A DNA stretch of 64,000 nucleotides from an uncultured Bacteroidia bacterium (GTDB lineage Bacteria; Bacteroidota; Bacteroidia; Bacteroidales; F082): assembly GCA_902799345.1 (NCBI GenBank), contig CADBZW010000010.1, positions 1 through 64,000 on the forward strand, written 5' to 3'. The position numbers and the translations under genes were made by a program. Positions 49,537-52,181 of the stretch are shown in pieces; within the stretch, counting starts at the first letter, position 1; each line of letters begins with the position of its first letter. The notes beneath the pieces are model-generated. The model did not search any database. It worked only from the letters and a program-made list of their open reading frames with translations, and was not told where the DNA came from.

Positions 49537-49577
49537 TCACTTCAGTGGGGCCACAGAAAAGGCCCCCGCCTCCAAAG

Positions 49578-49657
49578 TCAGGCCCTTACCCCTGACAATG
49601 ATAAAGGTGCCACAACACCACGGCAGAGGCCGTAAGCCTCTCGGTGTTGTGGCACCT
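49578..49657 (+). terminator. Double hairpin terminating the tail operon
   Basis: The first hairpin pairs GTCAGG with CCTGAC (49577-49595). The second is a 15-bp stem, AGGTGCCACAACACC (49605-49619) with GGTGTTGTGGCACCT (49643-49657), with an inner AGAGGC/GCCTCT stem, followed by a T-rich tail. It separates the late operon from the right-end unit. Confidence 0.75.
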
Positions 49658-49722
49658 ATTTGTTTATACAATGTAAGGGACTGCAAAAATAGATAAAAAA
49701 CGACAACCTAAAACATACAAAG

Positions 49723-49866
49723 ATGGAAAACAAGAAGAAAAGCTACACCTACCACCCGCAATACGGCATCGTGGTAATGTGCACAGACGAGCAGAACCAA
49801 ATCGACACGTTCAATCGTCTGAAGGAATTGAACCTTGGTCTAAAACTTAAAGTTGTAACGGTATGA
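49723..49866 (+). CDS. Small phage protein, first gene of the right-end unit
   Basis: A 47-residue basic protein (MENKKKSYTYHPQYGIVVMCTDEQNQ) starting 66 bases after the terminator. It overlaps the ABC-GNAT gene by four bases (ATGA), so it is coupled to it and may regulate or assist it, as Com does for Mom in Mu. Com is a zinc-binding translational activator; this protein has only one Cys, so it is not Com itself. Confidence 0.6.
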   Translation: MENKKKSYTYHPQYGIVVMCTDEQNQIDTFNRLKELNLGLKLKVVTV

Positions 49867-51002
49867 GAATCGAAATCAACCACACCTGCGAGGACTTCAC
49901 CAGCTACAGGGCAGAGCGCGTGAAATCCCTATTCAACGCCGAAACGGGCTACCAATGGAAGCACACGGCAGAACTGCCCATCGAGAACATGGACTGGCAA
50001 ATCGGCCTCATCGTCGGAAGGTCGGGAAGCGGGAAAAGCAGCATTGGAAAAGCGATGTTCCCCGGTGTTCCGCTCTATGACCTTTATGCCGGATGGCATG
50101 AAGACCGTCCCATCATCGACGACATTTGTCCCGATGGTGACTTTGACGCGGTGACGGGCGCACTGTCAGCCGTCGGCCTTGGCGATGTACCGGCATGGCT
50201 GCGACCGTTCAAGGTGCTTTCAAACGGCGAACAATTCAGGGCCGGTCTCGCCCGTCTCGTTTGCGACAAGCCTGAAATCGCCGTCGTGGACGAGTTTACC
50301 AGCGTAATTGACCGCCAGATTGCCAAGATAGGCGCGGCGGCCTTTGCGAAGAGTTGGCGGCGTGGAAAAGGCAAAATCGTCCTTCTTACTCCGCACTTCG
50401 ATGTGATTGAATGGTTGCAGCCCGATTGGGTGTACAACACAAACGAGGCGCGGTTCTACACCCGCGACTGCCTTCGGCAAAGGCCACAAATCGAACTCTC
50501 AATTTACAGAGTTCCGGGAACGAAATGGGGTTATTTTAAGCCACATTACTATTTAGATCTGCCCATGCCCATCGCGGCCCAGTATTTCATCTGCTTTGCC
50601 GGTGACGAGCCTGTGGCACACCTTGCCGTTTGCCCGATGTTTCAGGGTGGACACTACCGGGCCACGCGCCTCGTGGTCATGCCGGAGTGGCAGGGCATTG
50701 GCGTTGGCACGGCCTTCCTGAATGAGGTTTGCAGGCTTCATCTTGATGGCCAGGGACGGTGTGGGCGAAAGTACACCACATTGTTCCACACCTCGCATCC
50801 GCAACTCTGCCGTGCGCTCAGGAAGTCGCCCAAATGGGTGCAGGTCAGTGGTGCGCTGAAGTTCGCCGACAAAAGCAAGTCCATCAAGACACTCAGCCGG
50901 TCGGCTATCAATGGCGGCATGAAACACGGAAGCGGTGGCTTTGGCGGCCATTTCAGGGCGGTACAAGGATTTGAATATATAGGAGACCAGGAACTATGTT
51001 AG
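49863..51002 (+). CDS. ABC-type ATPase fused to a GNAT acyltransferase domain (COG2401 type)
   Basis: A 379-residue protein. The ABC domain (about 40-205) has Walker A GRSGSGKS at 52-59, signature LSNGEQ at 119-124, Walker B EIAVVDE at 138-144 and switch His178 in TPHFD. The C-terminal GNAT domain (about 235-345) has motif A RLVVMPEWQGIGVG with QGIGVG at 277-282, which binds acyl-CoA. No transmembrane segment is present, so it is not a transporter. It lies at the phage right end, where Mu has mom, whose product is a GNAT-fold adenine-modifying enzyme. A DNA-modification role is inferred. It overlaps the formyltransferase gene by seven bases. Confidence 0.8.
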   Translation: MRIEINHTCEDFTSYRAERVKSLFNAETGYQWKHTAELPIENMDWQIGLIVGRSGSGKSSIGKAMFPGVPLYDLYAGWHEDRPIIDDICPDGDFDAVTGALSAVGLGDVPAWLRPFKVLSNGEQFRAGLARLVCDKPEIAVVDEFTSVIDRQIAKIGAAAFAKSWRRGKGKIVLLTPHFDVIEWLQPDWVYNTNEARFYTRDCLRQRPQIELSIYRVPGTKWGYFKPHYYLDLPMPIAAQYFICFAGDEPVAHLAVCPMFQGGHYRATRLVVMPEWQGIGVGTAFLNEVCRLHLDGQGRCGRKYTTLFHTSHPQLCRALRKSPKWVQVSGALKFADKSKSIKTLSRSAINGGMKHGSGGFGGHFRAVQGFEYIGDQELC

Positions 51003-51505
51003 TGAGGATATTAGGACAGACAACAACGCAGGCATATATCGCCGCAAAAGAGGTCGTAGAAAGATGCGGCTGCACGGTGTTCCATGATTCGATGGAGTAT
51101 CTGCCGGACATGGAGATAGACCTGAACATCGCGCCGTTGCTGACGGAGAAGATCCCGACCGATGTAATCAAGGAGCCTCGCTTAGGCACGCTCATCTTTC
51201 ATCCGTCACCGCTGCCGTATGGACGCGGTGCGGCATCCATCAAATGGGCCTACAAAAGGAATGAAGCCGTGACCGCCGCGACATGGTTCTGGGCTGATGA
51301 TGGCCTTGACACGGGCAATATCTGTGAGCAGGAAATCGTCAAAATAGACCACACCGTCAAGCCGCGACAATTCTACGAGCGCGACATAATTCCAGCCCTT
51401 TGTCGAACGCTTGAACGCTGTTTAAGCAGCCTTCGAATAGGTCTTAAACGCGAGATAAAGCAGCAGGGCAAATACGCCACATTCGACAGGAAAGAGGGCT
51501 TATAA
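50996..51505 (+). CDS. Formyltransferase-like enzyme (Fmt/GART fold), phage-encoded
   Basis: A 169-residue single-domain protein. The family core is IFHPSPLPYGRGAASIKWA with His69, and DDGLDTG with Asp105, corresponding to the catalytic His and Asp of 10-formyl-tetrahydrofolate-dependent formyltransferases. The Asn normally two residues before the His is Ile67 here, so the chemistry may differ. Only the N-terminal domain is present; Met-tRNA formyltransferase is about 310 residues. It is coupled to the ABC-GNAT gene by a seven-base overlap and is the last gene of the prophage. Confidence 0.75.
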   Translation: MLVRILGQTTTQAYIAAKEVVERCGCTVFHDSMEYLPDMEIDLNIAPLLTEKIPTDVIKEPRLGTLIFHPSPLPYGRGAASIKWAYKRNEAVTAATWFWADDGLDTGNICEQEIVKIDHTVKPRQFYERDIIPALCRTLERCLSSLRIGLKREIKQQGKYATFDRKEGL

Positions 51506-51508
51506 GCG

Positions 51509-51546
51509 AAGTGGGCGCACCGGGGAAAATCCGACGCGCCCACTTT
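51509..51546 (+). terminator. Terminator after the formyltransferase-like gene
   Basis: AAGTGGGCGC (51509-51518) pairs with GCGCCCACTT (51536-51545). It marks the end of prophage transcription, about 50 bases before the right boundary. Confidence 0.75.
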
Positions 51547-51598
51547 TGGAAAAAATTGTACGATTCATTTTAGAAATGTGTACAATTCGTTTTTGCGA

Positions 51599-51871
51599 TT
51601 ATATACGCTCTTCAATACTTGCTGAATCAATGTCAAATTGCGTTTGCAAGTTCATCCAAACCTCTGCAGGAATACCCATAGCTTTTTCTAATGCCATGGC
51701 TACGGAAAGCGAAACTGAGCGTTTCCCATTGATGGTTTCGCTAAGGACAGAAGGTTTGATGCCAGTCAATTCCGACAATTGTTTCTGCGTCATGTTTCGC
51801 TCTTTCAGTTCATCCTTAATCATTTCTCCAGGATGAGTCGCAATAAAAGGGGTTATTCTATTATTATTCAT
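51599..51871 (-). CDS. higA: HigA-type antitoxin (XRE family)
   Basis: A 90-residue protein with the HigA pattern: HPGEMIKDELKERNMTQKQLSELTGIKPSVLSETINGKRSVS (HTH) and WMNLQTQFD. It neutralises HigB and represses the operon. The C-terminus (SIEERI) is about 10-20 residues shorter than common HigA proteins, and the last codons lie at the prophage boundary, so insertion may have trimmed it. It overlaps higB by eight bases; here the toxin gene comes first, as is usual for HigBA. Confidence 0.88.
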   Translation of the reverse strand: MNNNRITPFIATHPGEMIKDELKERNMTQKQLSELTGIKPSVLSETINGKRSVSLSVAMALEKAMGIPAEVWMNLQTQFDIDSASIEERI

Positions 51872-52181
51872 AATGCTTTGATATTTCGATTATTAATGCG
51901 TTAACAACGATTCCATTTCCATCAGGCGAACTCCCAAAATGCAATCTGTACTGGGTATTAATCCACACCACTTCCACACCTTTCAGGTCTCCTTTCTTTT
52001 TCTCATAATGCAGCGACTTAATCAAATACAAATCCTCAACACGTGTCGCGGCTTTAATATAATTTACCGTTTTGACGTATTGCTTCACTACATCTAAAGG
52101 CAACTTCTTGTATTTTCGTTCTTTAGTTGAACCTGTCGTGTATAGTTCTTCTAATGCATTATCGTCAAATGATATGTTCAT
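51864..52181 (-). CDS. higB: HigB-type toxin (RelE superfamily mRNA interferase)
   Basis: A 105-residue protein. The RelE-fold pattern is seen in the KLPLDVVKQYVKTVNYIKAA helices, LKSLHYEKKKGDLKGVEVVWINTQYRLHF, and NALIIEISKHYE at the end. HigB cleaves mRNA on the ribosome. It is the first gene of the pair, with a TATTTTTG promoter 20 bases upstream. The pair borders the right end of the prophage and is taken as host DNA. Confidence 0.88.
   Translation of the reverse strand: MNISFDDNALEELYTTGSTKERKYKKLPLDVVKQYVKTVNYIKAATRVEDLYLIKSLHYEKKKGDLKGVEVVWINTQYRLHFGSSPDGNGIVVNALIIEISKHYE

What the first reader, a model, noticed from the sequence alone, without database searches (positions are those of the whole stretch)
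49723..51505. Candidate new right-end DNA modification or anti-restriction system
After strong terminators lies a separate three-gene unit with overlapping genes: a 47-residue protein, an ABC ATPase fused to GNAT (no membrane part) and a one-domain formyltransferase-like protein. Mu carries com and mom at the same place; Mom is a GNAT-fold enzyme that modifies adenine in DNA. Here the acyltransferase is joined to an ATPase that could scan or remodel DNA, and a folate-type C1 transferase is added. The combination would suit an adenine hypermodification that differs from Mom's.
Basis: inference. Interest (0 to 1): 0.85.

Follow-up and report, generated by a model that had tools for sequence, protein, structure and literature searches.

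The report
Phage DNA acyl-modification cassette replacing mom
At the right end of a Mu-like prophage sit three overlapping genes that probably put a small acyl group, perhaps formyl, on phage DNA bases to dodge restriction; the core enzyme type was predicted earlier but not tested in the papers seen, and some of its relatives sit just where phage Mu keeps its own DNA-modifying gene.

Summary
The three genes are real and exactly placed. The core is a fused ABC ATPase and GNAT acyltransferase, for which DNA-base acyl modification was already predicted (Iyer 2013, as cited in PMC7824862). Added here: (1) the 47-residue protein is not Com-like; it resembles the C-terminal tail of ParB-like proteins that precede ABC-GNAT in other phages. 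(2) A formyltransferase-fold gene (FMT) follows ABC-GNAT in 110 of 118 close relatives with room for it, and in 0 of 140 distant ones. (3) FMT is closest in sequence to the hydrolase domain of 10-formyl-THF dehydrogenase, which hands formyl to a phosphopantetheine thiol, and like it lacks the Asn of amine formyltransferases. (4) In 19 relatives a Mu-Com-type gene lies just upstream, and 0 of 14 such virus or phage records shows mom. (5) A sister clade carries aspartate decarboxylase and/or CoA-transferase-III-like genes. Best reading: FMT makes formyl-CoA and ABC-GNAT formylates DNA bases. DNA as target is likely; formyl is a prediction.

The parts
49723..49866 (+). 47-aa protein: stand-alone version of the C-terminal tail of ParB-like proteins
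   Evidence: phrog_28816; NHagos ParB query hits homologous small ORFs, e.g. L017 60% id, E 3e-10; tail HMM hits the C-terminus of 73 long ParB-type ORFs
49863..51002 (+). ABC ATPase fused to GNAT acyltransferase, 379 aa; Walker A 52-58, LSNGE 119-123, DEFTS 143-147, switch His 178, GNAT motif QGIGVG 277-282 (motif names recalled)
50996..51505 (+). 169-aa formyltransferase-fold protein (FMT), closest in sequence to the hydrolase domain of 10-formyl-THF dehydrogenase; H69, S71, D105 invariant
49579..49683 (.). inverted repeat before the cassette
51509..51545 (.). inverted repeat after the cassette
51546..51603 (.). right end of the Mu-like prophage, about 51603
   Evidence: identity to L008 and L009 stops at 51603 in both

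Best explanation
A DNA acyl-modification cassette that does Mom's job. The ParB-tail protein (in other phages a whole ParB-like protein) helps bring the machine to phage DNA. The ABC ATPase, as an ATP-driven dimer, engages or distorts the duplex. The GNAT domain transfers an acyl group from CoA to a base amino group. In this clade the acyl group is most likely formyl: the FMT moves formyl from 10-formyl-tetrahydrofolate to the CoA thiol, as proposed for HypX and as described for the FDH hydrolase domain with its carrier arm, and ABC-GNAT uses the formyl-CoA. The mark would protect packaged DNA from restriction. Shown here: the genes, their linkage, conserved catalytic motifs, and a com gene without mom beside the cassette in relatives. 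Inferred: DNA as target (about 0.75), formyl as the group (about 0.35), the ATPase and ParB-tail roles.
For: Position: Com homologs 184-332 bp upstream of the ABC-GNAT match in 19 of 281 loci, all in the group at least 45% identical to the window protein; of these 19, 14 have the FMT, 3 lack it with room and 2 are cut. Three of four candidate Com ORFs scanned score PF10122; the fourth (L072) was sent in a wrong frame. No mom in 14 of 14 of these virus or phage records; Mu has com then mom at its right end. In Gordonia, Streptococcus, Leptospira and Pasteurella phages the order is ParB-like, ABC-GNAT, then terminase one to three genes on, the 'ParB-Tls' region known for DNA-modification genes (PMC6536676, passages). 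ParB-like DpdB acts in dPreQ0 insertion, though it is said to be dispensable in some clusters (PMC12839542, passages). Linkage: FMT in 110 of 118; one tree clade of 50 rows, 42 FMT, 5 without, 3 cut, support 100/100. Two single ORFs hold ABC-GNAT plus FMT. Chemistry: FDH best by sequence (E 3.5e-46 vs 2.9e-28 for Fmt); no Asn two before the His in 49 of 49, as in FDH (Ile there). FDH/HypX mechanism from PMC6802093 (passages). A sister clade has Asp_decarbox PF02261 (E 2e-33) and CoA_transf_3 PF02515 (E 2.2e-8).
Confidence: 0.55

Rival explanations
1. Two-step base modification: GNAT attaches an amine-bearing acyl group (glycyl or beta-alanyl type) to the base and FMT then formylates that amine on DNA, as Fmt does on methionyl-tRNA.
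For: Many Formyl_trans_N enzymes among the hits act on amines (Fmt, ArnA, sugar formyltransferases); the sister clade carries an aspartate decarboxylase, which makes beta-alanine (the reaction is recalled).
Against: The Asn of amine formyltransferases (recalled) is missing in 49 of 49; FDH is the closest relative by sequence.
Confidence: 0.15
2. The cassette acylates a host protein or RNA (RNA polymerase, ribosome, tRNA) to help take over the cell.
For: Phage GNATs are known or predicted to modify RNA polymerase and ribosomal proteins (PMC7824862, passages); an ATPase plus GNAT architecture exists in tRNA acetylation by TmcA (recalled).
Against: ParB-like partner, terminase-near placement and a com gene without mom all point to DNA.
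Confidence: 0.15
3. The FMT is an independent metabolic gene (purine or folate supply) that merely travels with an ABC-GNAT modification gene.
For: Annotators call it phosphoribosylglycinamide formyltransferase; 8 of 118 relatives with room lack it.
Against: Immediate linkage in 110 of 118 and one shared tree clade; PurN is a far weaker match (E 2.3e-16) than FDH.
Confidence: 0.07

Closest known systems
ABC-GNAT predicted DNA acyl-modification system (Iyer et al. 2013, as described in PMC7824862; Tenacibaculum phage pT24)
   Same: Same ABC ATPase plus GNAT family: pT24 matches at 38.6% identity, E 5e-37 (annotated there as two ORFs); same predicted class of function
   Different: Here an FMT and a stand-alone ParB tail complete the unit, at the right end of a Mu-like prophage; whether the 2013 paper mentions the FMT could not be checked (not held)
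Phage Mu com-mom
   Same: Right-end position; GNAT enzyme (Mom as GNAT: PMC7824862); in 19 relatives a Com gene precedes the cassette
   Different: No detectable sequence similarity to Mom; extra ATPase and FMT; no Com found in the window
10-formyl-THF dehydrogenase (ALDH1L1) hydrolase domain and HypX N-terminal domain
   Same: Formyl_trans_N fold, His and Asp catalytic residues; Ser and the lack of Asn two before His as in FDH
   Different: Stand-alone, without carrier, dehydrogenase or CoA-binding domains; 169 aa in the window; HypX was not checked for the Asn
ParB-Tls phage loci with ParB-MTase modules (PMC6536676, passages)
   Same: In several siphophage relatives a ParB-like protein precedes the enzyme and terminase follows
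   Different: Acyltransferase instead of methyltransferase; here only the ParB tail is present and the place is the right end

Membership tests
ABC-GNAT DNA acyl-modification family (predicted) | ABC ATPase and GNAT in one protein or adjacent ORFs, homologous to phage pT24 | tested here: met
   38.6% identity to pT24, E 5e-37; Pfam domains; phrog_11143 E 2.5e-141
ABC-GNAT DNA acyl-modification family (predicted) | intact ATPase and CoA-binding motifs | tested here: met
   G52, S54, G55, G57, K58; L119, S120, G122; D143, E144; H178; G278, G280 invariant in 52 sequences; motif meaning is recalled
ABC-GNAT DNA acyl-modification family (predicted) | an acylated base in the DNA | not testable with these tools
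   needs nucleoside mass spectrometry
Mom family | sequence similarity to Mu Mom | tested here: not met
   hhalign probability 0.1% (one Mom sequence); no tblastn hit of Mom in the window at E<=0.01
Mom family | right-end location in a Mu-like phage | tested here: met
   right end about 51603; Mu transposition genes and portal
Mom family | preceded by Com | tested here: not met
   no Com hit in the window; met in 19 of 281 related loci
FDH/HypX-type formyl transfer to thiol | His/Ser/Asp present, Asn two before His absent | tested here: met
   49 of 49 sequences for each; FDH has Ile there; the triad alone is shared with Fmt and ArnA (PMC6802093)
FDH/HypX-type formyl transfer to thiol | closest in structure | tested here: inconclusive
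Amine N-formyltransferases (Fmt, PurN, ArnA) | NxH motif with catalytic Asn (recalled) | tested here: not met
   0 of 49 have Asn at that position; of this genome's two other Formyl_trans_N proteins one shows NIH, the other was not caught by the pattern used
Com (PF10122) | zinc-ribbon cysteines in the 47-aa protein | tested here: not met
   one Cys in the window protein; 0 of 72 matched segments of stand-alone small ORFs has four or more Cys; no Pfam match

The most novel reading that the evidence does not exclude
Phages formylate their DNA: a folate-dependent enzyme makes formyl-CoA and an ATP-driven GNAT puts N-formyl groups on exocyclic base amines. Sister clades swap in other acyl-CoA supply genes (aspartate decarboxylase, CoA transferase), so the family would be a modular DNA acylation platform whose chemical mark is set by the donor gene next door.
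Probability: 0.3. Interest if true: 0.87.

Novelty: new variant of a known kind. Interest (0 to 1): 0.63.

Why it matters
If right, it gives a widespread family of phage enzymes (ABC-GNAT), so far a prediction in the papers seen, a concrete chemistry, a donor-making partner and a functional equivalent (Mom). It would add base acylation with formyl-CoA to the known DNA hypermodifications, give formyl-CoA a use beyond those named in PMC6802093 (oxalate CoA-transferase and, as proposed, HypX), and offer a way to predict the mark from the gene beside ABC-GNAT. It is directly testable by nucleoside mass spectrometry on phages that have been isolated.

Tried and rejected
Com-like role for the 47-aa protein: rejected (no cysteine cluster; matches ParB tails). 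The 'acr candidate' label on the Porphyromonas copy is an annotation only; not followed. Mom membership: rejected by sequence. Transporter: ABC motifs are present, but the protein carries a GNAT and the unit holds no other ORF for a permease; only shows that residues 1-209 have the ABC ATPase fold and does not test the GNAT half. ABC-GNAT-FMT single ORFs (L012, P0046) are weak evidence, since a one-base error in the gene overlap would give the same. RNA switch between com and the small gene: mean z -1.2 in 19 loci; the column-shuffle null of the consensus fold was degenerate, so inconclusive. Spread in the host's order: 1 of 295 genomes (the own one) at E<=1e-30, with only 6 candidates scored per genome in the rows listed, so probably accessory. 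Left prophage end not found.

Literature, all in the held open library: COG2401/acetyltransferase/phage 0 papers; Mom/hypermodification/GNAT/formyltransferase 6 papers, two opened at passages, neither relevant; ParB/ABC ATPase/acetyltransferase/DNA modification/phage 2 papers, both seen at passages; momylation 1 paper, passages; phage Mu/Mom/carbamoylmethyl/adenine 47 papers, listing of 20 only; Porphyromonas/transposable/prophage/formyltransferase 0; GNAT/ABC ATPase/ParB/formyltransferase/DNA modification 2 papers, none with 'formyltransferase'; formyladenine/phage DNA/modification listing of 15 of 3,650, none of the 15 with 'formyladenine'; formyl-CoA/bacteriophage/DNA modification 1 paper, where it names an integration-site neighbour. 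So the FMT link and the com-without-mom arrangement were not seen in print in these searches, but Iyer 2013 is not held and may contain part of it. Locus counts are not deduplicated: near-identical and repeated contigs are included (for instance L127 and L189 lie on one contig, L075 and L160 are the same phage). The loci were drawn with ABC-GNAT queries, and two scans kept only the best 80 of 581 and of 180.

Full report
OBSERVATION. Pfam finds ABC_tran and GNAT in the 379-aa protein and Formyl_trans_N in the 169-aa protein. Phage families of unknown function match the first two proteins (phrog_28816, phrog_11143). The element is a Mu-like prophage with transposase, MuB-type ATPase and Mu portal. 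Its right end is near 51603, where identity to two other prophages stops in both cases. Across 49549-51603 those prophages are 96% and 91% identical to the window, while the window's tail genes just upstream (about 43.3-49.5 kb) give no nucleotide match to either locus, which suggests that the cassette moves as a block. Inverted repeats lie on both sides.

THE 47-AA PROTEIN. Proteins annotated as ParB-like, or homologous to such, sit directly upstream of ABC-GNAT in phages of Gordonia, Rhodococcus (Jace), Streptococcus, Oenococcus, Leptospira and Pasteurella. Pfam confirms ParB_N for the Streptococcus one (E 1.1e-11) and finds no family in the Gordonia NHagos one. Their last 35-40 residues resemble the small ORF: the NHagos protein used as query hits small ORFs at up to 60% identity, E 3e-10 (L017). 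A profile made only from 72 stand-alone small ORFs hits the C-terminus of 73 long ORFs that also match the ParB profile; 67 of these 73 lie directly upstream of an ABC-GNAT. So the protein is best read as a freed ParB tail, not a Com.

EQUIVALENCE TO MOM. Mu Com, used as query, hits 8 loci just upstream of ABC-GNAT. A profile finds 19 of 281, all in the group at least 45% identical to the window protein, with 184-332 bp between the Com match and the ABC-GNAT match and the small gene in between. Of the 19, 14 have the FMT; L053, L114 and L115 lack it with room, and L122 and L126 are cut. Three candidates score PF10122 (E 1.1e-20, 3.4e-13, 3e-5), as does Mu Com itself (2.7e-9); the L072 ORF sent with them was in the wrong frame and scored nothing. 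A search of the whole records for Mom found none in the 14 Com-bearing virus or phage records, one partial match on another contig stretch in 1 of 5 bacterial genomes, and a Mom in the non-Com record L246, which shows that the search can find distant Mom proteins. Several virus records are fragments. So in these phages the cassette stands where mom stands in Mu. In several siphophage relatives it stands between a ParB-like gene and terminase, the region described for DNA-modification genes (PMC6536676, passages, citing Iyer 2013). ParB-like DpdB is part of another base-modification system, though said to be dispensable in some clusters (PMC12839542, passages).

ALTERNATIVE DONOR GENES. Jace gp87 is PF02261 (E 2e-33) and gp88 matches the first part of PF02515 (positions 4-107 of 366, E 2.2e-8). 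An Alsobacter locus has homologs of both, one on each side of ABC-GNAT (L069). Other loci of this clade carry one or both. Both fit the supply of an acyl-CoA other than formyl-CoA (inference); the short CoA-transferase may not be a full enzyme. ASCH-domain genes follow the Streptococcus MismyG, Oenococcus and L190 versions.

GNAT DIFFERENCES. 26 positions are at least 95% conserved in 31 FMT-clade sequences (30 with FMT, plus L085 placed there by the tree) but present in at most 15% of 21 others, among them H253, F308, H309, G362 and H363 in the GNAT part. This is consistent with a different acyl group or acceptor in this clade (inference).

PHAGE CONTEXT. Of 52 FMT-bearing loci from bacterial genome contigs, 24 have a homolog of this window's own phage genes in the stretch held. 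Of ten large upstream ORFs, one from each of ten further loci, six match tail, terminase, tail-sheath or integrase families, one a reverse transcriptase, two only unnamed phage families, and one nothing. The remaining loci were not examined for context one by one.

PRIOR WORK. PMC7824862 (passages) says the authors had earlier predicted that a GNAT coupled with an ABC ATPase makes an uncharacterised acyl modification of a DNA base, naming phage pT24, a homolog of this protein. Thus the core idea is in print; the FMT/formyl-CoA link, the ParB-tail identity and the com-without-mom arrangement were not seen in the searches listed under Tried and rejected.

VERDICT. A real, mobile, conserved phage cassette; most likely a DNA acyl-modification system that stands in for Mom, with formyl as the best guess for the group.

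Noticed in passing
L246:10358-10825: A Mom homolog (46% identity to Mu Mom) lies about 3.3 kb downstream of a stand-alone ABC-GNAT of the P12024S type, so one phage can carry both.
   Followed up: partly
L012:1245-2846 and protein P0046: ABC-GNAT and FMT read as one open frame of 534 and 540 aa; true fusion or an indel in the overlap.
   Followed up: partly
L077:9127-9516, L207:5982-6347, L190:5198-5629: ASCH-domain genes next to ABC-GNAT; an ASCH protein (YqfB, recalled) removes acetyl from N4-acetylcytidine, which may hint at cytosine acylation.
   Followed up: no
L017:5054-6646: Reverse transcriptase (phrog_1423, E 9.5e-66) upstream of the cassette, possibly a diversity-generating retroelement.
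   Followed up: no
window 51599-52181: A HigB-like protein (PF05015, E 2.2e-6) and an HTH_3 protein on the - strand abut the prophage end; the right end falls at the 3' end of the HTH gene.
   Followed up: partly
L202, L200, L205 and L209-L288: ABC-GNAT without ParB or FMT in the stretches held, in T4-like and marine phages; donor and context unknown.
   Followed up: partly
window ABC-GNAT residues 253, 309, 363: Three histidines conserved in the FMT clade and not in the others; could form a metal site.
   Followed up: no
L170 and L179 downstream of ABC-GNAT: A further ParB-like ORF (judged by eye) follows ABC-GNAT in these contigs.
   Followed up: no
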